17,599 bases of DNA, taken from assembly GCA_030267965.1 (NCBI GenBank), contig BRYA01000931.1, forward strand, positions 6,484-24,082. Direction: 5' to 3'. The translations under genes and the position numbers were made by a program. Source of the stretch: Triparma columacea. Taxonomy: Eukaryota > Sar > Bolidophyceae > Parmales > Triparmaceae. Positions 41-13,307 of the stretch are shown piece by piece (positions within the stretch are counted from its first letter, which is position 1; each line of letters begins with the position of its first letter). A model generated the notes under the pieces. The model was not told the DNA's origin and did no database searches. It worked only from the letters and a program-made list of their open reading frames with translations.

Positions 41-3000
41 ATGGGGCCCCTTTGCGAGTCTCTCTCATCTCTTTACGGTTCCCGCGGTGGCGCAGCTTCC
101 ATGACTTGGGAGAACATGAGGGACTTCGTTGAGTCTGCCTGTTCGCGCGTCCTCTCTAACAACATATTTGTCGAGAGTACGTACCTGGTTGCCTCGTCGT
201 CACTCCTCCTGCCCCGGCCTCCTTTTCGCACCTCTCCTGAGGCCTTCGCCAGAAATGTCGGGACCAACAACCCCTCAATGGTCTTTGTCTCTGCGAACCA
301 GCTCGAGGCCATGACTCTTGGTTCCGCTGTTGAGTTGTCTTCGACCCCTACGCTTCCTCTGCTTCTCGATTCTGTTTCGTTTGCAGATGTGCTCTCCACC
401 ATGAACCCCATGACTGTTAGCAAGATGCAGCTACAGAGACTTCAAGAGATTGTTGATTCGGGTTTCGGTTTCAAGAGGGCCAATTTGGACGACATTCACG
501 AGTCTGTTGAGGATGCTGCCGGTCCTAGCTTCATGCAGCAGTACGCTGCACTGCTTGCCGCTAAGAAGGTCCAAGATGAGATCAAGGAGGCTACCGAGCT
601 TGTTGCCAATCTTGGTCATGCAGTGAGGCAGAGAGCCTCAGAGCTACTGCTCGAAGGGCCTTTGTTGAGCCTCAAGGAGGGTATCGGGAGAAATGATGGG
701 GGGGCTGCTGCGACCGTGGAAAGCAGCCAAAGCTCAAGACCTGAGATATCACGGGCTCGTATGCATGCCTACAGTCAGGTCTCTGACCGTTCTGGCCGAG
801 GGATCGCTGGCTATGAGGGGTGGGGCTGGTCCGAATCGTCTACTTCGCTCGAGAGTAGCGGTGAGCCAGTTTGCGTTCTCGAGATCAGTCCTGAGAGGCT
901 CGAGGAGATTCAGGGATGTGACTCCCAGCCCTTCTCTGCCCATCTCATCAGGATCTTGAACCATGCGTCCACTGATGATAGGCTTAGCAATGTCAAGGAC
1001 ATCGTTCAGTACTACCCCGGCGTCGATGTGGACGTGCAAGGAAGGGAGAGTGACAGTGGAGGCGGTTCTGGAGGCCTCAAGGGCAGGGTTCGCGCCGCCC
1101 ATGTTGTGACGACGTCGCTGGATGGCTACTCGCCTCTTTCCAACATTGTCGATGCCAAGGGTGGCATTGGCAGTACCAACTCAGGTGTAAGGCTCGCTAG
1201 ATACGTGGGAAGACAGGTTCTTCGAACGCTGTCCAGAATCCATGATGGCAATTACCTGCTGAGAGATCTCAGCTTGAAGTCCATCTTCCTGCCTCCTTCC
1301 CTGGACTCCAATGACTCTATCATTATCGGGAGCCTGCTCCACTTGGGTGTCCTGGACGAGGATGGCAACTTAACGAATGAAGCCCCTGATCTTGACCCTA
1401 GCTTGTTCAGTTTGACTTCCAGCATGTGCCCACCTGAGGCTCTTGCTGTTAAGAAGTTGTCCCTGGAGCAGGGAGGAGGCTTCGAGGTCGAGTTCACTGA
1501 CTCGAGGTCCCTAGGAAAAGCAAGTGGTACCAAACCGGCCACCAAGACTTGGGATACTTGGTGCTTCGGGGTGATGCTATTCGAACTGGTGACGGGGAAG
1601 AAGATACCATCCTACGGCAGCAGTTTAATGGGATACCTTGGGAAGTCTGAACAGTCAGGAGATTCTGATCAGCTGTTAAGGCGTTTCCATTACGACTGGA
1701 TCAAGGCCATCGGAGAGAGTAAGGGCGAACGAGACGTCGCAAAGGTGGAGAGCTTCGATGATGACTCTGATGAAGAGGTCAACTTTTCGGACCAGAAGCC
1801 TGGACTGCAGCTCTGCTCGTCTGTGCTGACCTCTGCGACCCCTTTGAACTCCTCGACTGGACCACCCACGGTGGACTCCTCCCTTTTGGCATCTTCTGCC
1901 CTCCTTGCTTCTCTCGCCAACGGTTTCAGCTACAGGGCTCTTCTGCCCCGCAGCGCAATCATCGAGAGTGGAGGGAGGAAGGCGGGCGATCAGCTCATTG
2001 AGGCCATCCGTCAGAAGTGGATTCGCCTCGAGATGAGCCACGACGGCTCTTCGACCTCATGTTGCAGTTGGCCAGAGTTGATTGAGAAAATGTCTCGCCA
2101 TGCAAGAGGCATTGAGAGGAAGGTGAAGGCCGAGAACGCTACCAAGGGCAACGATGGTGACGCTGACGAGACTTCTCATGCTCTCAAGGTGCTTAAGTCA
2201 CTCGATTCGGCCGACCGTAGGGGGCTGGCCCCTTCCGTATTTGTCGAGAACCTTATTTCCGGACCCGACGGCATTCATGGCAATGGTCTCAATTATCCTT
2301 TGACCCCAGTCGAGGCCGCCCGCTTGGCGTCCTGTGCCACTTTCATTGACAAGGCTGATTCTGGCAGCGAGCCCCTCGTCTTCTACGAAGCGTTCGCCTC
2401 CATCTTCAGCGGATACCCTCACGGAGGCAAGTTCGGAGGGAAGGAAGACCCTTCCTCTCTCCTCCTGGACGTCCTTGCTCTCTGCTTCATCGGCCAGGCG
2501 GAATTGCGCCCCACGGCTGAAACGCTCCTCTCCCATCCATTTTTCACCCTCACTGATGCTGAAGAGAACGCTGCCATGTTGGACGCCAAGGCTTATAACA
2601 GCGGGGCTGGCCCAGTGAACGTCATGGTTCAACAGCACGTTATCAAGCCGCTCCATGAACTGACAATGCAGAGCGCTAAGCTTACTAATGCCCAGCAGAA
2701 GGTCGATTTGGCTCTTTCGATAGGTGCCACGGACATTGACGGCGCCCACAACGACCATCTCTTCGATGTTGGCACTTTCTGTGATGTCCTCAACTCCGCA
2801 AGCAGCTTCCTTCACGGAGGTGGCGAATCAAGCTTTAGCAACAGTGCTGCCGCTGAGGGAAGTAGGGTTGCTCACAGCAGCCGCTGGTCCCCGTCAGAGA
2901 GGCTTCACGCGGCAGAGTTGATGTTCTCTAATGAGCTCATGGTTGGCGGTATCCTTCCGAAGATCGTAGCTTGCGCGTTGAGGTTTGTAACCAGTGATCA

Positions 3001-6000
3001 GGGAAGCATGACAGGATATGACTTCGAGAACGCTGCTGCCGTTGGAGGTTCTGCCAATGCCACACTTGGCCAGCGCCTCATGAGCAGGATAGTCCGCTTC
3101 TTCGAGAGCGTCCTCCTAGAAACGAGGCCTATCGCCGAAGGTGGAAACAAGCTCAAAGATGGGCCGGCGACGCCTTACGTGAGCAGTATCTTGGAGGCCT
3201 TGGTGAAGCTCTACCTGGGAGAGGAGGCAGGTCTTGCCTCTATCTACGGAAAGGGGCGAGGCTTCAGGATAGACTTTTCAGGATTCGGAGGAAGCAATTT
3301 TGGCTACGACGACATCTCACATATCAAGGGTGGCGTGAAAATATCCAAGTCCACGAAGTGGGGTCCTTTCGGGAGGGACATGGAAGGCGTGAACCACTGG
3401 TCGCCTAATTTCATGAACGTCATTGAACCTGTTCTTTTGCTCGCCGTCACGGAAAGCGGAGGGGGGAACCACCTTTATGCCCCCATCGTCGATTTTATCA
3501 GGGCCTCCAAGGTCAAGATCGAGGCAGGAGATGAAGATGCAACTGTGGGAGGCGGGGGTGATGATGATGATGATGATGACGACTTGGTGGGGACGGAGAG
3601 TGGCGCTGTCACAACCGTGAAGCCCTTTATGAGAACGAGCCTGTACTTTTCAGAGCTTGTCAGTCTTGGGCGCACCTTTGCTAACCTCGCTGCTGCCTCA
3701 CGCGGGCAGGGAAGGACAGGTGCCAGGGCCAGGAGGAGCTGCGTAAGCTTCATTTTGACCATGGTGAGGTTGTGGGGCTTGAAGGAGGGGGGAGGAGCAG
3801 CCGAGGGTCTCTCGGCGCGCCCAGATGCTCTTAGCAGCATGCAGCGTGCCCAGCTCCTTCTGGATGTCAGGGTTGCAAGCAAGCTGCTTCCTTACGTGGC
3901 GGATTACGATGCCGAGGTTCGAAGGGATGTCCTTACCTCTGCCCTTGCTGCGCTCTCGACCGGCATGCCCTTGCTTGGTGGGAACACCGGCAACGTTGCC
4001 AACCCTCACGCCGAGCTCGGTTTGGAGTTCTGCAGCAAGGGTTGGTGCGAGGCCTTCGGCAAGGCGCTTGTGAGTGGTGGATCCACCAAGGACGACGCTG
4101 CTTGCAGGACGCTTGCGGCACAGTGCCTAGAGAGGATGGCTTCGGCCGGGGATGTTGCCTGCGAAGGTTGGGGCGTGGCCGGCGTTGTCGGCAACCTGGG
4201 CAATGCGCTCACCGACAACAGGCGGGCAGGAGCTAAGGACGGCGCGCTAGCCGTCTTCGAGGCGCTTGCGTCCTCTTCGGCTCCCAACGTCAGCAAGCTT
4301 CTACAGGCTCATCCTTCCATTCAGTCCAACCTAGCTAGTGTTGGGCTGTCTATGCCGCCCCCTCTGAACCTGCCTATGCTTTCCCAAAGGGGCATGGACT
4401 TGGCCAAGGGTCACACTATGGCAGAAGTTGAGCAGCTCGTCAGCATGGTTAGGAACCTTCTCAGCTCCGCTGCGCAGATGGATGACAGTTCGGTGCTCGG
4501 AGAGGGCAGACCTCCGGAGAGTCTTATCAAGTTGGTTGCCCAGATTTGGGGCTGGTTTGAAGTGTACTGGTACAAGGCTAGTCTCGCTGGATTGAGCGGA
4601 AAGAATGATCCTCATGAGAACGCAAGGACTCACGTCTTAGCCGAGTGCATAGACCTTTTTGAGTTCTTGGTAAGCGGAGGAGGAGGCGAGAGGGGCGCCT
4701 GGCTATTAGACATTGCTCCAGACTACGATGTCTGTAAGGTTGGAGGGATCAGACCCCCGGGAGATACTGGGGATGGCCCCATGAACGAGGAAGAGGAGGA
4801 GATAGAGAGGGAGAGGGAGGGGAAGAGGAGGGGGAAGGAAATCACGAAGAGGCTGCTCATGGACATTGGTATGGGCATGGAAGAGGCTGGTCTCGAGGAA
4901 GATGACGATGGTGACGGTGACGAGAATAAGGCTGCCGGGAACGGACTTACTGCCTTTGTCACCAAGATGGGGAGGAACAGAGGCGGAGGATTCGAAGCTT
5001 TCCGCGCTGACAAGCTCGTTGGCTTGAAGGTGAAGGTCATGCACGCCGTTGCTAGCGGGATGAAGTCCGGGGGGAGCACCGTTGTCGACAAGATGCTCAA
5101 CAGCGGGGTCGCGCTATACTTTGGTGAGGCCATGCATGCTGGAGCATTGCTCGTCAAGAATGCGATCAACTCAGGGTCTGAGCACATTCACCTTGCGACG
5201 AATTACGCTGATGCTTGTGCTGCTAGGGCCAGGATGTGGGAATGTCTTCTAGTCAGCAGGAGCAAAAAGTGCGCTGAGCAGATCCTTTTGAGCGGAGTGT
5301 GTGAACTTATCGTCGGGGTAATGCTGAGAGATGAGAAGGCTGTTGACGTGACAAATGTTGTTATCGACCTGCAGTTTGCCCCCTTCAACGGGAAGCGCCT
5401 TTGCAGGAACGAGGCCATTGGAATGCTAGTTGCTTGCAAGAAGGGTATCGGAGAAGGTTCCACGATTGTCTGCAAGGCCGTGGTTGGCGAGATTGTGAGG
5501 CAGCTGAGGAAGTACGACACGGTAGCGCAAGAGAGAGAGAGCCTCTGGAGGATGGGTGGAGGAGGGAAGACTCTGAGGGCCAGACAGGCAAGGTCTGAGG
5601 TAATCAGGGTGATGAGAGCTATACTCAGTGTTAGGAGTTCCGAGTTGGTGAGGGACCTCCAGTTCATTGCAGGAGTCGGCACTGATCTGCTCGAGAAGGA
5701 GGTTGCTCTGTGGAACGGACTGCCGTTGAGCATGGTTGAAAAGAAACACCTGGCTGCTGAGTGGGTGAAGTGGGCTAAGGGTCAGGCGGAGCAGTATGAT
5801 AACGTCCGTGTAGTTGCGGACGAGGACAACGATCTCTTCAAGTACGATTCCGAGCTCAGAGAGCTTGTTGGCAGGGGTGGGAGAGCTGGAAGGAGAAGGG
5901 ATGAGGAGGTTGGCCAAGAGGTCAAGGCTGCCATCACAGAGAGTGTCGCCCAGAGCATGGGTGCAGGGAATGCAACCGTTCCTGTTGGAAGGAACATTCC

Positions 6001-8413
6001 GATCGAAGCCCATCCGGCTCCCGTTGAGCGTGTGGTTTCGGCGCCTGCAGCCACAGCAGATATCGCCCCTGTAGCTCCAAGTCAGGCGACCGCATCGGTT
6101 GCCGAGGCTCTCGAGGTGGCACCCCCCGCTGTGCCAAGCAAGAAGCTTTGCACGATCAAGGTTGTCGGCCCTCCTGAAAAGCTCTCGCTGCAGAAGCTCC
6201 TCAATGGCATCGCTGTGGATGTTGGGTGCGACGACAATGAGATCACGGCCCTTAGCGTGAGGAGGGGCATCCAAAAAGGCGGAAATGGCGAAGCCACGAT
6301 CGTTGAGCTTTCCGTTAACGATGGTGTCGCGACGAGCATTCACACCCGAGCCAGGGCGGCCATGTTCCTGACTGAGGCCGGAAGTGGATTGACATTCGTT
6401 AGTGTTGAGATCCAGAGCATGGGAAGGATCGACAACAAGGGGAACGAAGTCTTCGGTGGAATTGATGATGACATGGAGTTCGGGATCGCTACTGGCACTG
6501 GTAGTAAGAGTGCCATGAGTATGAGCTCCGGCTTAAGCAACTTTTATGCCGAGGCCCCCATGGACACTTACGTCTCAAATCTCAGAATGAACAGGGGGGG
6601 GGCCGGCGGAGATGCGACTGGCTATGATAGGGCTGGGGTGGATTTCGGAACCCAGTACTCCGCGAGGAGTGGAGGATCGAGGTCTGCGAGGTTCGGGCGT
6701 AGTGGAGGGAGAGGCGAAGAAGCATCGCCTCCCACCCTCCCTCTGATCTTGGACCGCCTCGGAGGGGCAATTGCCGAGATTAAGATGGTTTATGATTCCA
6801 GGTCCTCTGACGACGGGACTTTGGACCGCCAAGACATCATGAATGGGCTGCTCGATCTGAGAATTGACCCCATGCTGGCGAGGGATGCGGTGAAGACCAG
6901 TTCCATGTGTGACTTCCATTCTTTCGTGCTGATGCATGCCAAGACCGCTGGTTACGACGGTAGCGGCGATGAGAGCGGCAACGGAAACGTGAATCTCCCT
7001 GGAGAGATGTGGGTCGAGAACGGCTCCTCTGGAAGGTGGTTGGTTCTTGGTGGAAGGGACGTCGGCAAACTGAGGAGGGGTTTCGACAATTTTGCTGAGA
7101 GGTTCGGAGCTGACAGCGACAAGAGCATCCTCAGTAAGGACAAGCTGAAGAGTGCCCTTCGCGCAGTTGGCGGCTTGGTGGTTTCCGATGGGGAAATCGG
7201 CAAGTACTTGGGAGCCAGAGGTGGAGTGCTGAACGTTTCGAGGAAGGGTGAGAGTATCATTGGCTTCCAAGAGTTCTGCCGCTGTTGGCTCGAATTCGGT
7301 GGTGAGAAGGACGGTGACTGGGCCGTCGAGAACATGGGGCGAAGCGTGGAGATGAGGGGGAGGGGGGAGGAGGGAGAATTTGACATGTACGATGAGTACG
7401 AGGGAGAGGAGAATTTGAGGAAGAACATCGACATTGGGAAGGACTTGGAGGAATTCCTTGTACCTGATGACGACGAGATGGAAGACTACGCCAAAGAGGA
7501 GAGGTACGCGAACTTGGGGGCGGGTGCCAAGAAGTTCGCCAGGGATGACTTTGCCTCGAGCAGGGTTAGGGACAGTGGCCCCGGCTTCAGGATGTCGGGA
7601 GGCGGGGCGCGCTGGGCTGCGAAGCAGCAAGAGAGGAAGAAGGCGGCCGGCAAATTCAAGGGAGGCGAGAGAAGCTTGTTGGGCGTGAGCGCCGAGAGGG
7701 GAGGAGACGACACTCTGAGAGACGAACTGAGGGGAAGTGCACTGAAAAGGGGGTTCAAAGAGTTGAGCGGGGGCAAGGATAGGATTACCATGGGAAGCTT
7801 GAGGGTCGCGATGGCCAAGAGGGGCGACAGCGGGGGAGCTGCTGAAGATGAGGCGTTGAGAACTTTCATTGAGAGCAGAGGGGGGAACATTAGGGATGGC
7901 TTGACGGAGAAGCAATTCAACGACGCGTACGAAAGTGGAAGGGGGGGCATTGCCGGTGGAAGCATCAGTCTTCCCTACGTTGACGACGGAAGCCGCGTCG
8001 CCGGTAGCGGCGGAGTGAGTTGGAAGGACAAGAAGGGGGAGGGTAGGGATAAGGGGAAGAAGGGGAAGAAGAGGTATGAGGATAGTGACGATGAGAGCGA
8101 AAATAGCGATGAGGAGGAGGACAGCCCAAGGTTGAGCAGGAAAGATAGGGAGTCGAGAGACGAGGAGATAGACGAACTCACAGTCGATCCTTTCACGGAG
8201 GAGGCTATTTTGAAGACCTTCAACATGTACGACCTTAATTCCGACGGGGTCATCAGCTACCTGGAATTGAAGACCATCTTCCAGCAGCAGGGAAGGGACA
8301 GTTTGGACTACGAGATTAGGAGCTGGATCCGGAGCCGCGATTCAAGCGGAACGGGAAGCGTGAACTTCGCGGATTTCAGGAGGAACTTCCTGTTGAAGCA
8401 GATGAAGCGGTGA
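41..8413 (+). CDS. Giant pseudokinase / helical-repeat / EF-hand protein (probably 5'-partial)
   Basis: One uninterrupted 2790-codon frame. Residues ~355-835 read as a protein kinase domain: an alpha-E helix then an HRD-like R408-D409, with the catalytic-loop Lys and Asn replaced (S411, S414); a subdomain IX block with D505-x-W-x-F-G; then, after an insert of nearly 300 residues, a subdomain XI block LRPTAETLLSHPFF around 822-835. No convincing DFG is seen (only a DEDG stretch), so it is probably a pseudokinase. Residues ~1266-1414 look like HEAT/ARM-type helical repeats, and D1174-D1181 is an Asp run. Residues ~2237-2304, ~2343-2421 and ~2558-2632 look like degenerate EF-hand pairs. A charged disordered segment (~2666-2713) precedes a good EF-hand loop at 2731-2742 (D1, N3, D5, S9, E12) and a weaker one at 2767-2778. 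ULK4 and Fused kinases also join kinase and ARM repeats, but homology to them is not shown. The frame is open to the left edge and a splice acceptor lies just upstream of the first ATG, so the true start is probably outside the window. Confidence 0.85.
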   Translation: MGPLCESLSSLYGSRGGAASMTWENMRDFVESACSRVLSNNIFVESTYLVASSSLLLPRPPFRTSPEAFARNVGTNNPSMVFVSANQLEAMTLGSAVELSSTPTLPLLLDSVSFADVLSTMNPMTVSKMQLQRLQEIVDSGFGFKRANLDDIHESVEDAAGPSFMQQYAALLAAKKVQDEIKEATELVANLGHAVRQRASELLLEGPLLSLKEGIGRNDGGAAATVESSQSSRPEISRARMHAYSQVSDRSGRGIAGYEGWGWSESSTSLESSGEPVCVLEISPERLEEIQGCDSQPFSAHLIRILNHASTDDRLSNVKDIVQYYPGVDVDVQGRESDSGGGSGGLKGRVRAAHVVTTSLDGYSPLSNIVDAKGGIGSTNSGVRLARYVGRQVLRTLSRIHDGNYLLRDLSLKSIFLPPSLDSNDSIIIGSLLHLGVLDEDGNLTNEAPDLDPSLFSLTSSMCPPEALAVKKLSLEQGGGFEVEFTDSRSLGKASGTKPATKTWDTWCFGVMLFELVTGKKIPSYGSSLMGYLGKSEQSGDSDQLLRRFHYDWIKAIGESKGERDVAKVESFDDDSDEEVNFSDQKPGLQLCSSVLTSATPLNSSTGPPTVDSSLLASSALLASLANGFSYRALLPRSAIIESGGRKAGDQLIEAIRQKWIRLEMSHDGSSTSCCSWPELIEKMSRHARGIERKVKAENATKGNDGDADETSHALKVLKSLDSADRRGLAPSVFVENLISGPDGIHGNGLNYPLTPVEAARLASCATFIDKADSGSEPLVFYEAFASIFSGYPHGGKFGGKEDPSSLLLDVLALCFIGQAELRPTAETLLSHPFFTLTDAEENAAMLDAKAYNSGAGPVNVMVQQHVIKPLHELTMQSAKLTNAQQKVDLALSIGATDIDGAHNDHLFDVGTFCDVLNSASSFLHGGGESSFSNSAAAEGSRVAHSSRWSPSERLHAAELMFSNELMVGGILPKIVACALRFVTSDQGSMTGYDFENAAAVGGSANATLGQRLMSRIVRFFESVLLETRPIAEGGNKLKDGPATPYVSSILEALVKLYLGEEAGLASIYGKGRGFRIDFSGFGGSNFGYDDISHIKGGVKISKSTKWGPFGRDMEGVNHWSPNFMNVIEPVLLLAVTESGGGNHLYAPIVDFIRASKVKIEAGDEDATVGGGGDDDDDDDDLVGTESGAVTTVKPFMRTSLYFSELVSLGRTFANLAAASRGQGRTGARARRSCVSFILTMVRLWGLKEGGGAAEGLSARPDALSSMQRAQLLLDVRVASKLLPYVADYDAEVRRDVLTSALAALSTGMPLLGGNTGNVANPHAELGLEFCSKGWCEAFGKALVSGGSTKDDAACRTLAAQCLERMASAGDVACEGWGVAGVVGNLGNALTDNRRAGAKDGALAVFEALASSSAPNVSKLLQAHPSIQSNLASVGLSMPPPLNLPMLSQRGMDLAKGHTMAEVEQLVSMVRNLLSSAAQMDDSSVLGEGRPPESLIKLVAQIWGWFEVYWYKASLAGLSGKNDPHENARTHVLAECIDLFEFLVSGGGGERGAWLLDIAPDYDVCKVGGIRPPGDTGDGPMNEEEEEIEREREGKRRGKEITKRLLMDIGMGMEEAGLEEDDDGDGDENKAAGNGLTAFVTKMGRNRGGGFEAFRADKLVGLKVKVMHAVASGMKSGGSTVVDKMLNSGVALYFGEAMHAGALLVKNAINSGSEHIHLATNYADACAARARMWECLLVSRSKKCAEQILLSGVCELIVGVMLRDEKAVDVTNVVIDLQFAPFNGKRLCRNEAIGMLVACKKGIGEGSTIVCKAVVGEIVRQLRKYDTVAQERESLWRMGGGGKTLRARQARSEVIRVMRAILSVRSSELVRDLQFIAGVGTDLLEKEVALWNGLPLSMVEKKHLAAEWVKWAKGQAEQYDNVRVVADEDNDLFKYDSELRELVGRGGRAGRRRDEEVGQEVKAAITESVAQSMGAGNATVPVGRNIPIEAHPAPVERVVSAPAATADIAPVAPSQATASVAEALEVAPPAVPSKKLCTIKVVGPPEKLSLQKLLNGIAVDVGCDDNEITALSVRRGIQKGGNGEATIVELSVNDGVATSIHTRARAAMFLTEAGSGLTFVSVEIQSMGRIDNKGNEVFGGIDDDMEFGIATGTGSKSAMSMSSGLSNFYAEAPMDTYVSNLRMNRGGAGGDATGYDRAGVDFGTQYSARSGGSRSARFGRSGGRGEEASPPTLPLILDRLGGAIAEIKMVYDSRSSDDGTLDRQDIMNGLLDLRIDPMLARDAVKTSSMCDFHSFVLMHAKTAGYDGSGDESGNGNVNLPGEMWVENGSSGRWLVLGGRDVGKLRRGFDNFAERFGADSDKSILSKDKLKSALRAVGGLVVSDGEIGKYLGARGGVLNVSRKGESIIGFQEFCRCWLEFGGEKDGDWAVENMGRSVEMRGRGEEGEFDMYDEYEGEENLRKNIDIGKDLEEFLVPDDDEMEDYAKEERYANLGAGAKKFARDDFASSRVRDSGPGFRMSGGGARWAAKQQERKKAAGKFKGGERSLLGVSAERGGDDTLRDELRGSALKRGFKELSGGKDRITMGSLRVAMAKRGDSGGAAEDEALRTFIESRGGNIRDGLTEKQFNDAYESGRGGIAGGSISLPYVDDGSRVAGSGGVSWKDKKGEGRDKGKKGKKRYEDSDDESENSDEEEDSPRLSRKDRESRDEEIDELTVDPFTEEAILKTFNMYDLNSDGVISYLELKTIFQQQGRDSLDYEIRSWIRSRDSSGTGSVNFADFRRNFLLKQMKR
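3560..3583 (+). repeat. GAT/GAC trinucleotide run encoding eight Asp
   Basis: Six GAT codons followed by two GAC codons inside the giant gene encode D1174-D1181 after a Gly-rich stretch. It is a coding microsatellite, likely variable in length and lying in a disordered linker. Confidence 0.9.
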
Positions 8414-8625: not shown

Positions 8626-10131
8626 TCACTTCTTTGCAGGAGGGGCGGGCAAGCCGGGCTTTCTCAAATCGTGGGTGCCCCAAACGTTGTTAAGCTGCTG
8701 GGTGACGCGGATGAAGGTAGTCCGCTTGGGCAGCTCCTTCAAGCTGGAGGCGCCGACATAAGTGCACGAGGACCTAATTCCACCCAAAACGTCCAGAATG
8801 GTATTGTGCACGGTGCCCTTGTACGGGATTGAGACAGTCTTTCCCTCGGAAGACCTGTAGTTGGCGACACCACCAGCGTGCTTCTCCATGGCGGTGGAGG
8901 AGGACATGCCGTAGAAGAGTTTGACCTTGGTGCCATCATCATGGACGACAAGCTGAGCGACGAGCGAAACGAAGAGTGTCGTAGAACGTGATTGGGGTGT
9001 TGGGTGAGAAATAAATGACATAGTATGATTACTGCATGAAAACTATTATCGTCCTTTCTCACCTCACCACCAGACTCATCGTGGCCAGCGAACATCCCCC
9101 CCGTCATGACGAAGTCGCCACCGCCTCCGAAAGCCTTTGAGAAGTCCCCGGGGCACGTGCATCCGCCGTCGGAGACCACATGTCCCCCAAGTCCGTGGGC
9201 GGCATCGGCGCACTCGATTACCGCGGAGAGCTGAGGGTACCCCACCCCTGTCTGCTTGCGGGTGGTGCAGACGGAACCTGGGCCGATGCCTACCTTGACA
9301 ACATCAGCGCCGGAGAGGATAAGCTCCTCACACATCTCACAGGTGACGACGTTGCCGGCGACGATAATATGCTCAGGGAAAGCTGCGCGGGCCCTGCGGA
9401 CGCAAGAGATGAAGAACTCAGAGTATCCGTTCGCAACGTCCAGGCAGATGAAAGGGATCTGGGGGTGAGCGCTCAGGATGACCTTGAGCTGAGGAGCGGC
9501 GGGGGAGTAGAGTTAGCCAAGTGTGAAATCATAATGTATCTTTCAATAGATCGTAACTACCTCCTCACCTTCTCGAAATCCGAGTCACTGCTCCCTGCAG
9601 AAGCGGCAACATACTCCAAGGTGGACTCGTTCGCAGCAGCAAACTCGCCCCACTGTTCGGGGGTGTAGTGCTTGTGAATGCAGGTCACAATTTTATGAGT
9701 CGCAGCAGCCTTGGCAATCTCAAACGTGCCGGTTGTGTCCATGTTGGCAACCTGAGGTGGGCGGTGTGTGAAGAGAACGAGCGGATTTCCGCCGTTCGCA
9801 CAAATTAGAAGGTCAGCAGTTGGACAGAAGCCCCTCGCAATGGCCGCACCAACGCAGCGATCCCCTTCACTCACCATTATGGGAACGCCTGTCCAAACCT
9901 TTGGGGAGTGCTTGAACTTGAACTGCCTCTCGACGGTGACCTCAGATCTAGACTTCAAAGTCGAGCGCTTAGGACGGATGAGAACATCTGTACGGGTGTC
10001 GGAAGGGCGGGGTTTTGGAGGAGGAAATGAGGGTTTCGCGACATCTGGGTGAGATTTAAAGGAGGCCATGCTACAATGGGTACGATGGACTCACCCTTGA
10101 AGTCCAACTTCATCTCAGATTCGATCCTCAT
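8626..10131 (-). CDS. guaC: GMP reductase (five exons)
   Basis: Catalyses NADPH-dependent reductive deamination of GMP to IMP in purine interconversion. Exons on the minus strand: 10131-10095, 9987-9875, 9751-9569, 9488-9063, 8952-8626; the joined length is 1086 nt, or 361 residues, close to E. coli GuaC and human GMPR (about 345). All four introns are GT-AG (107, 123, 80 and 110 nt). The spliced N-terminus [20 protein letters not shown] matches the family, with the Asp codon split by intron 1. Further family blocks are [42 protein letters not shown] with catalytic Cys ~185, [22 protein letters not shown] and [15 protein letters not shown] is favoured over IMP dehydrogenase by its length, lack of CBS domains and GMPR-specific C-terminus. 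An ATG at 10069 opens a long frame but lies inside intron 1. The C-terminal tail after the conserved FIRVTQQ is longer than usual (about 20 residues, ending AKK); a missed last intron is possible. Confidence 0.95.
9752..9874 (-). other. GMP reductase intron 2, length divisible by three and stop-free
   Basis: This 123-nt interval has a GTGAGT donor and a CACCTCAG acceptor. It splits the family-conserved block GVPI(M/I)-(V/A)ANMDTVG exactly between codons. If retained it adds 41 in-frame residues in the active-site core, so the reading frame alone does not reveal it. Family conservation does. Confidence 0.92.
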
Positions 10132-11222: not shown

Positions 11223-12086
11223 CTATATGTTTGTGCCTGGAGCCTCCAGTATATCTCGCTCCAATTCCCTCTGTAGAAAGCTCTGCGCCCTAACCGGTCT
11301 ATCCTTTTCCTGGCTCGAGGCTTTTGATCCACCGAAGATGTTATGGAACGTTTGTTTTCTTTTTTTCACTTGTGTCCCCCCCCTACCGTCGTCATCGCCC
11401 GCGTAAATCTCTTCGTACCTAAACTTCCTCTTGATCCTGTCCATCGACCTCCTTATCACCTCGAACCCCAGGATGATGCATATTGAGCACGGGATGGCTG
11501 TTTCTACGGGAGCTATGATAAAGAAGGTGAAGATCTGGGCCATCCCAAAGCAGCAGGCTCCAGTCCAGAAAGCGGAGAGGATAACAAGGCGCTCCTCCTT
11601 CATGTACTGAACGGATTCGTGCATTGACCCCTTCGGCCCGTTGAGGGCGAACGTCGGCCCCAGTACCGACACCAGGGTGGCGTTCATAACGCAGTACATC
11701 TCAAAAAGGAGGGCGCTGGTGTTGAAGAAGTAGTACCCCAGGATCAAGAGGGGGTGGACGGTCTTTGCGAGCTCCACGGCATAGCTGACAGCCGCGGCAA
11801 AGCCACAGATGAGGGCAGCCTGGGTGCCGATGGCCTGAAGGTAACGATCTATGTTGTTCATCTCAATGTTCTTGATTTGGACGGCCTGGGCCTGCAGGTC
11901 GGTCTCGACGGCACTCCTGTCCGCGGCGAGCCTGGGGTTTGGTTGTTGGGAACGGGGGGGGGGGGGGGGAGTCAGGGAGGTGCCGAGCATGGGGGGGGGG
12001 GTGGGAAGTTGCAGGAAAAGTGGGGAGAGCACCCAAATCACCGGAAATACAGGGGAGGCGCAGGAACAACGCCCTAGAACGTACAT
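11223..12086 (-). CDS. Orai/CRAC-like calcium channel subunit
   Basis: Orai proteins are four-helix plasma-membrane subunits that form hexameric store-operated Ca2+ channels. In the 287-residue frame TM1 (~88-107) holds GTQAALICGFAAAVSYAVEL, resembling the Orai TM1 ALLSGFAMVAMVEV; Glu105 is the counterpart of the selectivity-filter Glu. TM2 is ~113-144 (ending ATLVSVLGP), TM3 ~167-191 and TM4 ~196-212, followed by a basic cytosolic tail with a terminal helix-prone segment. The spacing from GF to Glu is two residues longer than in animal Orai1. The N-terminus is uncertain: residues 1-51 are encoded by C-run-rich DNA that looks like an intron ending at 11932, so the real coding part may begin near residue 52 or at Met76. 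It shares a roughly 150-bp divergent promoter region with the next gene. No STIM-like partner is visible in the window. Confidence 0.7.
   Translation of the reverse strand: MYVLGRCSCASPVFPVIWVLSPLFLQLPTPPPMLGTSLTPPPPPRSQQPNPRLAADRSAVETDLQAQAVQIKNIEMNNIDRYLQAIGTQAALICGFAAAVSYAVELAKTVHPLLILGYYFFNTSALLFEMYCVMNATLVSVLGPTFALNGPKGSMHESVQYMKEERLVILSAFWTGACCFGMAQIFTFFIIAPVETAIPCSICIILGFEVIRRSMDRIKRKFRYEEIYAGDDDGRGGTQVKKRKQTFHNIFGGSKASSQEKDRPVRAQSFLQRELERDILEAPGTNI
11932..12084 (-). other. Candidate intron in the N-terminal codons of the Orai-like gene
   Basis: On the minus strand, GTACGT at 12084-12079 is a possible donor. The other end shows CTGAC, a 16-base C run and AAACCCCAG, a textbook branch point, pyrimidine tract and acceptor. 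The interval is 153 nt (3n) and stop-free. Removing it joins AT to G and so rebuilds the ATG. The acceptor looks good; the donor is weaker than the GTGAG/GTAAG donors elsewhere in the window. Confidence 0.35.
11954..11969. repeat. 16-base G run (C run on the minus strand)
   Basis: A mononucleotide tract within the candidate intron of the Orai-like gene; a second 11-base run lies at 11991-12001. If this DNA were coding it would be an unstable poly-Pro segment, which argues for the intron interpretation. Confidence 0.85.
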
Positions 12087-12242: not shown

Positions 12243-13307
12243 ATGAAGGACCAGACTTGGAATTTCTTAGTTCCCGGATCTGGCACCCACACCTTCAGAT
12301 GGACAGGGTCCAACGCCTTCATTGACTCAACTCGAATTAAAATGAACAAGTCAACGCACCCCAATCTGTCATACGTCTTCTCGGGTGTCAGATTATTGCT
12401 CTCTCGCAACCCACAGCAGTCCGTAACCTCCCTCCAGAAGTGGCGTCTCCAGGTCGACGGCCGCCTGGTGGAGGAGTATGCCCTCACCTCCGGGGGGAGC
12501 AGGAACTACGGGGGAATGCAGGAGGGGAGCTACACCATCGCGACGCACTTCACGCCGAGCGTCGAACCCCAGGCCGTCTTCGTCTTCCTCTCGGGAGGCC
12601 TGAGCCACAACGTGTCGCTGGGACACGACCAGGCGACGGGGAGGGTGGAGCTTACGGTGGACGGGGAGATGAAATGCGGGAGGGACTTTAAGTTCTTCGA
12701 CAGCGGGATCAAACTTGACTTTGAGGCTGGGGGGGTGCCGTGCCAGGCAAGGATAAAAACAAGCATGCTGAGCTTCAATTATAAGCTGTTTGTGAACGAG
12801 AGGGAGGTGAAGCCATGCCATACAAAGGCGGGGGGGGCAGTGAAGGATTTCGAGCCGGTGGAGATTGAGGGACCTAGCAAGAGTGTGGGGGAGGAGGGGA
12901 GGCAAAGAAGAACCTCTGTGGGTTGGAACGCTGGGATGGTTGGGGAGGAGAAGGGGGGGGAGGAGGGGAAAGAGGAGGAGGGGGGGGGGAGAGGGGGAGG
13001 GGAGGAGAAGGAGGAGGAGAAGCACGAGCTCCGGACGAGCCACCGACAAAAGTCCGTGTCGATATCAGCTTCTTCATCCGGGTTCGGGGACGGGGACAAC
13101 GACGGGGGGTCAGGCTTGAGGGCTCCTCCGTCTTACGATTCTTACACCCCCACCCTACCCCGGGGGGTGGCGTACGACAGCTCTGAGGGCCTGTACACGT
13201 GCGGGGTCACGGTGAGGGGGAGGTTCCTGAACTTGGGAGCGTTTGACACGGTGGAGGAGGCGGCGCAGGCGTACCAGGAGGGCCTGCGGAAGTACTCGAG
13301 GAAGTGA
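12243..13307 (+). CDS. FAIM-like beta-sandwich fused to an AP2-like DNA-binding domain
   Basis: Residues ~5-190 resemble FAIM (Fas apoptotic inhibitory molecule), an all-beta protein. TWNFLVPGSGTHTFRW parallels the FAIM N-terminus, KWRLQVDGRLVEEY parallels its VDGK strand, and residues 133-190 (GRVELTVDGE ... FKFFDSGIKLDF ... QARIKTSMLSFNYKLFVNEREV) match the FAIM GKRVVYVDGK...FAYEYTLEING pattern. A Gly/Glu/Lys-rich disordered linker (~211-275) follows. The last 49 residues (306-354) resemble the AP2/ERF fold: RGV, an aromatic-rich strand, VRGRFLNLGAFDTVEEAAQAYQEG, matching the plant pattern RGVR...WLGTFDTAEEAARAYD. FAIM is cytosolic and has been linked to protein-aggregate control; AP2 suggests nuclear DNA binding. 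Residues ~22-65 are less FAIM-like and end in a CCTCCCTCCAG acceptor-like word, but no good in-frame donor was found. The reading frame is continuous across the fusion. Confidence 0.65.
   Translation: MKDQTWNFLVPGSGTHTFRWTGSNAFIDSTRIKMNKSTHPNLSYVFSGVRLLLSRNPQQSVTSLQKWRLQVDGRLVEEYALTSGGSRNYGGMQEGSYTIATHFTPSVEPQAVFVFLSGGLSHNVSLGHDQATGRVELTVDGEMKCGRDFKFFDSGIKLDFEAGGVPCQARIKTSMLSFNYKLFVNEREVKPCHTKAGGAVKDFEPVEIEGPSKSVGEEGRQRRTSVGWNAGMVGEEKGGEEGKEEEGGGRGGGEEKEEEKHELRTSHRQKSVSISASSSGFGDGDNDGGSGLRAPPSYDSYTPTLPRGVAYDSSEGLYTCGVTVRGRFLNLGAFDTVEEAAQAYQEGLRKYSRK
12945..13015 (+). repeat. G-rich low-complexity tract, G-quadruplex prone
   Basis: Repeated runs of four to nine G separated by GA-rich spacers encode the Gly/Glu linker of the FAIM-AP2 protein. 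Several G4-compatible combinations exist in the coding strand. The tract is prone to indels and sequencing error, and any such error would shift the frame into the AP2 part. Confidence 0.75.

What the first reader, a model, noticed from the sequence alone, without database searches (positions are those of the whole stretch)
12243..13307. FAIM-like domain fused to an AP2-like DNA-binding domain in one gene
FAIM proteins are normally small stand-alone cytosolic beta-sandwich proteins. Here a FAIM-like region (residues ~5-190, clearest at 133-190) is followed in the same uninterrupted frame by a Gly/Glu linker and a C-terminal AP2-like block (306-354). I know of no described protein combining the two. 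If real, it would couple a stress or aggregate-sensing fold to sequence-specific DNA binding, and would be a candidate new family of regulators.
Basis: partly seen in the sequence, partly recalled or inferred. Interest (0 to 1): 0.75.

Follow-up and report, generated by a model that had tools for sequence, protein, structure and literature searches.

The report
FAIM-like domains joined to AP2 domain
A small marine alga carries one gene that joins two FAIM-like modules, apparently in the reverse of the animal order, to an AP2-type module of the kind plants use to bind DNA; the combination is real and shared by relatives, but what it does is unknown.

Summary
The 354-aa frame at 12243-13307 encodes two beta-sandwich domains, a disordered linker and a C-terminal AP2 fold. 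Pfam FAIM1 hits residues 121-190 above its cut-off. Pfam AP2 is below its cut-off, but a family profile finds the plant AP2 factor WRI1 first among solved structures (E 2e-7), and the predicted model matches FAIM-NTD, FAIM-CTD and AP2 structures above unrelated rows. Of 8 homologues, 5 carry FAIM, linker and AP2 in this order, one of them an MMETSP transcript ORF marked complete. A second gene of the same genome has AP2, acidic linker and one weakly matched FAIM-CTD-like domain. New here: the FAIM halves look reversed (CTD-like first), and 5 of 5 linkers examined keep a basic-x-Ser/Thr motif before [VI]G[WF]. The interpretation (sequence-specific DNA binding, stress sensing) is untested; plant-type DNA-contact residues are mostly absent. 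Best reading: an adaptor of Parmales-like algae, with a protein-binding FAIM head tethered to a divergent AP2 anchor. New combination of two known kinds; function open.

The parts
12243..13307 (+). FAIM-like/AP2 fusion gene, 354 aa, one open frame with no intron needed
12243..12485 (+). Domain 1 (residues 1-81): beta-sandwich most like the human FAIM C-terminal domain
12522..12557 (+). EGSYTIATHFTP element (residues 94-105) between the two sandwiches; E94, G95, S96, Y97, I99, A100, T101, H102 and P105 invariant in the 9 rows aligned
   Evidence: low confidence in the model (residues 78-104 under pLDDT 50)
12558..12830 (+). Domain 2 (residues 106-196): beta-sandwich most like the human FAIM N-terminal domain; Pfam FAIM1 hit at residues 121-190
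12876..13148 (+). Disordered Gly/Glu-rich linker (residues 212-302, pLDDT < 50)
12906..12926 (+). Conserved short motif RRTSVGW (residues 222-228): basic-x-[ST] just before [VI]G[WF]
   Evidence: in 5 of 5 linkers examined (window, P0002, P0004, P0005, P0006)
13149..13304 (+). AP2 domain (residues 303-354), three strands and one helix
13307..13312 (+). AATAAA overlapping the stop codon, possible polyadenylation signal
   Evidence: sequence; role inferred

Best explanation
The gene encodes a modular adaptor, found so far only in Parmales-like algae and unnamed environmental contigs. Two FAIM-type beta-sandwiches (CTD-like then NTD-like) form a protein-binding head. A long disordered linker, with a conserved basic-x-Ser/Thr site that looks like a basophilic (AGC-type) kinase substrate, tethers the head to a small divergent AP2 domain. 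Most likely the AP2 end docks the protein on a nucleic-acid-bearing assembly (DNA, chromatin or RNA-protein) and the FAIM head brings or shields a protein partner there, with phosphorylation of the linker changing the coupling. Shown here by computation: the three folds, their order, its conservation, the linker disorder and the motif. Inferred: docking, partner binding, phosphorylation, nuclear location, any effect on transcription.
For: Fold matches for all three domains. FAIM, linker and AP2 in the same order in P0001, P0002, P0004, P0005, P0006 of 8 homologues; P0001 is 99% identical and so hardly independent, and P0005 as held starts after domain 1. Second gene in the same genome: AP2 E 1.3e-11 and CTD-like domain E 0.005 for an assumed 15000 proteins, 0 of 5000 shuffles as good for either; it keeps the AP2 end and an acidic linker while domain 2 is missing. 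Motif basic-x-[ST] before [VI]G[WF] in 5 of 5 linkers examined. The AP2 blocks keep a surface of their own: R4, G5 and [RK]G[RK] at 22-24 in 6 of 6, N27 in 5 of 6. Precedent for AP2 domains that do not use the canonical DNA-binding features: four Toxoplasma mitoribosomal proteins (PMC11742926, passages seen). [quoted passage not shown]
Against: No functional data. The AP2 may bind DNA in a way not read from plant residues; the second gene's AP2 region has net charge +5. The kinase-site reading rests on a short motif alone; 4 of 5 linkers have RRxS and P0004 has KSKS; P0007 has RRKS but no [VI]G[WF], P0008 has RMRSS but no [VI]G[WF], and the second gene's linker shows no such site. The linker of P0006 is only mildly acidic (Asp+Glu 25%, Lys+Arg 18%; whole protein pI 8.63). 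Three of 8 homologues (P0003, P0007, P0008) show no AP2 block in the sequence held; P0003 is labelled partial, the other two may be cut, mispredicted or truly lack it. FAIM-head partner binding is carried over from animal FAIM across a great evolutionary distance.
Confidence: 0.4

Rival explanations
1. A true transcription regulator: AP2 binds a specific DNA site, and the FAIM head senses misfolded or ubiquitinated proteins so that stress alters target genes.
For: AP2 part matches plant AP2 structures solved with DNA (WRI1, AtERF1); AP2 domains are mostly DNA-binding (established knowledge); [quoted passage not shown] UniRef names P0004 an AP2/ERF domain-containing protein. The second gene's AP2 region has net charge +5.
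Against: Plant-type contact positions mostly changed; net charge of the AP2 region is 0 or +1 in the window, P0001, P0002, P0004, P0005 and P0006. No sensing evidence.
Confidence: 0.2
2. A cytosolic proteostasis protein: the FAIM head is the working part and the AP2 fold has become a protein-protein or oligomerisation module without nucleic-acid role.
For: Loss of plant-type contact residues and lack of net positive charge; AP2 absent from the held sequence of 3 of 8 homologues.
Against: The AP2 block is at least as well kept as the sandwiches (mean column identity 61% against 57% and 54%, not quite the same rows) and is the best-kept part of the second gene; R4, N27 and the [RK]G[RK] turn are conserved.
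Confidence: 0.2
3. An RNA- or RNP-associated factor, the AP2 fold serving in an RNA assembly as in the Toxoplasma mitoribosome.
For: Precedent (PMC11742926). The only other Pfam FAIM1 gene found in this genome carries its NTD-like sandwich at the end of a frame with a CxxC...H...H stretch that looks like a zinc finger; Pfam does not report a zinc finger there.
Against: The Toxoplasma AP2 folds are mainly scaffolds for extensions that contact rRNA; no targeting or RNA evidence here.
Confidence: 0.13
4. Gene-model artefact: two neighbouring genes or a frameshift in the G-rich linker joined by chance.
For: G runs of 8 and 10 in the linker; no RNA reads for this species at hand; the T. strigata genes were predicted from protein hints without RNA (PMC10328945, passage).
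Against: Same order in relatives, one an MMETSP transcript ORF marked complete; a second gene with the same layout; a conserved motif inside the linker.
Confidence: 0.03

Closest known systems
FAIM / FAIM1 (Fas apoptotic inhibitory molecule, PF06905; human structures 3mx7, 2kw1, 2kd2)
   Same: Two beta-sandwiches of the FAIM fold; domain 2 scores above the Pfam cut-off
   Different: Halves apparently in reverse order (CTD-like first), joined by an EGSYxIATHFTP element, fused to a linker and AP2; animal FAIM is a small stand-alone protein (recalled)
AP2/ERF domain (PF00847; WRI1 7wq5, AtERF1 1gcc)
   Same: Three-stranded sheet plus helix, RGV start and LGxFxTxEEAAxAY-like core
   Different: Below the Pfam cut-off, plant-type DNA-contact residues mostly absent, a single AP2 joined to FAIM-like domains
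Toxoplasma mitoribosomal AP2 proteins (PMC11742926, passages seen)
   Same: AP2 fold that departs from canonical DNA-binding use
   Different: They sit in a ribosome and no FAIM domain is mentioned in the passages seen; no sequence comparison made here

Membership tests
FAIM1 | Sequence match to Pfam FAIM1 at the curated cut-off | tested here: met
   Window 24.6 bits vs 22. Relatives are weaker: P0006 21.4, P0003 20.5, P0004 16.4, P0005 13.2, none at E up to 1 in P0002, P0007, P0008 or the second gene P0009
FAIM1 | Two FAIM beta-sandwiches | tested here: met
FAIM1 | Order NTD then CTD | tested here: not met
FAIM1 | Small stand-alone protein | tested here: not met
   354 aa with linker and AP2
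FAIM1 | Prevents protein aggregation under stress | not testable with these tools
   needs bench work
AP2/ERF domain | Three-stranded sheet plus helix fold | tested here: met
AP2/ERF domain | Sequence match at the Pfam cut-off | tested here: not met
   21.5 bits whole protein, 26.5 for the block alone, cut-off 33.3; as whole proteins P0002, P0004, P0006 and P0009 give no AP2 hit at E up to 1; as blocks 4 of 6 do
AP2/ERF domain | Profile-level sequence relation to solved AP2 proteins | tested here: met
   WRI1 E 2e-7, ERF096 1.3e-3, AtERF1 7.5e-3; with the whole-protein profile WRI1 first at 0.0094
AP2/ERF domain | Plant-type DNA-contact residues (Arg/Trp of the sheet; positions recalled, not from a call) | tested here: inconclusive
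   By eye, only the Arg of RGV is clearly kept
AP2/ERF domain | Binds DNA | not testable with these tools
   needs bench work

The most novel reading that the evidence does not exclude
A new family of regulators in which a reversed double-FAIM head reads the state of client proteins and an AP2 end carries that information to DNA or RNA, under control of linker phosphorylation: a direct proteostasis-to-gene-expression switch outside animals and plants.
Probability: 0.12. Interest if true: 0.8.

Novelty: new variant of a known kind. Interest (0 to 1): 0.5.

Why it matters
[quoted passage not shown] Here both FAIM sandwiches occur in algae of the stramenopile line, apparently in reverse order and tied to an AP2 fold, and one half also occurs apart from the other in two more genes of the same genome. 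If so, the two halves are independent modules, older or more mobile than that account implies (the taxonomic spread of Pfam FAIM1 was not surveyed here). A natural fusion also gives a testable hint to where FAIM-type sandwiches act.

Tried and rejected
Artefact of the G-rich linker: set aside on the conserved order in relatives. Viral copies: a scan of viral contigs with the family alignment found 87 pattern matches, none a relative. Viral-structure search: no match at E 0.001 or better; the 50 rows shown are alignments of 43-78 columns, several named AP2/ERF or HNH endonuclease, and long low-probability ones; aligned ranges are not shown. Sequence-level proof that domain 1 is FAIM: a profile against solved-structure sequences and Pfam on 8 members gave no FAIM hit; the claim rests on predicted structure. 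The domain 2 profile also found no FAIM chain among solved-structure sequences, though Pfam did for 6 of 8 members. Common ancestry of domains 1 and 2 by profile comparison: probability 9.9%, E 0.0032, 14 columns, not supported. NCBIfam: nothing at E up to 0.1 for 3 proteins. Plain PDB sequence searches gave no FAIM or AP2 chain for the window (14 matches) and nothing for P0006. Foldseek gave no match at E 0.001 or better for either model. Protein searches were limited (searches scored only the roughly 8000 candidates sharing most words; one search scored 110), so absence from diatoms or other groups is not shown. Paper searches listed no FAIM-AP2 protein; some searches listed 20, 10 and 10 of 2479, 14693 and 341 papers. 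In the three papers opened because of 'FAIM' the word was the mass-spectrometry device FAIMS.

Full report
What is there. The frame 12243-13307 (+) runs from ATG to TGA for 354 codons. It lies between a divergent minus-strand gene (start 12086, 156 bases away), whose only Pfam match is a sub-threshold Orai-1 hit, and a convergent minus-strand gene of the rhomboid family (end 13371, 63 bases away). Its stop codon overlaps an AATAAA. The window lies in an unnamed 37.9-Mb genome; its named relatives at this gene are Triparma retinervis (71% identity over 60%) and Triparma strigata (43% over 100%), so the source is most likely a Parmales (Bolidophyceae) alga. Parmalean genomes are 31.0 to 43.6 Mb (PMC10328945, passages seen), which fits.

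Conservation. One search found 8 homologues. Five (P0001, P0002, P0004, P0005, P0006) have domain 2, a linker and the AP2 block in this order; four of the five (all but P0005, which as held starts after domain 1) also have domain 1. P0001 is 99% identical to the window protein. P0002 is an MMETSP transcript ORF marked complete. P0004 comes from a genome annotated from protein hints without RNA (PMC10328945, passage). P0003 (labelled partial), P0007 and P0008 lack the AP2 block in the sequence held. Two further searches added no new full relative; one search added P0010, see Noticed in passing. In the same genome a search with the protein gave one more place, C293, with a 236-aa frame counted from its ATG. 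Against profiles built without its row, its AP2 scores E 1.3e-11 and its N-terminal domain E 0.005 for an assumed 15000 proteins, with 0 of 5000 shuffles as good in either case. It lacks domain 2, and Pfam reports no family for it. Pfam AP2 finds only the window gene in the genome (a search that scored one candidate and missed this second gene), and Pfam FAIM1 finds one other gene, where an NTD-like sandwich (34.3 bits) ends a frame of about 700 aa.

Linker. In 5 of 5 linkers examined (window, P0002, P0004, P0005, P0006) a basic-x-[ST] stretch stands just before [VI]G[WF]: RRTSVGW, RRASGIGW, KSKSTVGW, RRKSSVGW, RRNSSIGF; Asp plus Glu make up 21 to 30% and Lys plus Arg 7 to 18% of what follows up to AP2. 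P0007 (RRKS) and P0008 (RMRSS) have a basic-x-Ser site without the [VI]G[WF] part, P0003 ends before it, and the second gene shows no such site in its linker. RRxS resembles the consensus of AGC-type kinases (recalled); phosphorylation is not shown.

AP2 surface. Invariant in the 6 blocks: L2, P3, R4, G5, V6, G23, L28, G29, V34, A37. N27 is kept in 5 of 6 at the place where WRI1 repeat 2 has Tyr before LG. Set beside WRI1 repeat 2, the Arg of RGV is kept, while the basic and Trp residues of the first two strands become small, acidic or Tyr (by eye). Net charge of the AP2 region is 0 (window, P0001, P0004, P0006) or +1 (P0002, P0005), and +5 in the second gene. DNA binding of the plant kind is therefore not to be assumed. 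Four AP2 proteins of the Toxoplasma mitoribosome do not use the canonical AP2 features for RNA (PMC11742926, passages), and one survey of 26 species found apicomplexan-type AP2 genes absent from its stramenopiles (PMC4501334, passages).

Mechanism. I take the protein to be an adaptor: FAIM head for protein partners, regulated tether, divergent AP2 as anchor to a nucleic-acid-bearing assembly (confidence 0.4). Animal FAIM counters aggregation and is recruited to ubiquitinated proteins under stress (PMC7056718, passages) and works with small heat shock proteins (PMC9570119, passages); that this holds for the algal head is inference.

Verdict. Observation confirmed and extended; interpretation half supported. 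A novel combination and apparent reversal of known domains, conserved in one algal lineage as far as searched; function unknown. No paper describing it was listed in the searches named under Tried and rejected, which cover open-licence PubMed Central papers only and show only part of some listings.

Noticed in passing
window 11223-12086 (-) and P0010: P0010 (ENA, 214 aa) joins 47 residues of a FAIM-AP2 relative (44 of 47 identical to P0002) to a sequence 57% identical over 154 columns to the divergent neighbour gene of the window. It suggests that the two genes are neighbours in a relative too; whether the join is an inversion, an assembly fault or a gene-model error is open. The neighbour's Pfam Orai-1 match is sub-threshold.
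   Followed up: partly
L008:1133-3238 (own genome C84): A 701-aa frame (mechanical TTG start) ends in a FAIM-NTD-like sandwich (Pfam 34.3 bits) behind low-complexity Ser/Thr/Pro and Lys-rich stretches and a CPLC...H...H stretch: another setting for this half.
   Followed up: partly
L002:1477-2226 (-) (own genome C293): Second gene with one weakly matched FAIM-CTD-like domain, acidic linker and AP2; not modelled in 3D.
   Followed up: partly
window 41-8413 (+): Very long single frame of 2790 aa with a C-terminal EF-hand pair (35.7 bits) and a weak, sub-threshold protein kinase match.
   Followed up: no
window 8739-9335 (-): Fragment of an IMP dehydrogenase / GMP reductase gene (108.5 bits), probably one exon of an intron-bearing gene that may go on to 9557-10069 (-), where Pfam reports nothing; the exon reading is inference.
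   Followed up: no
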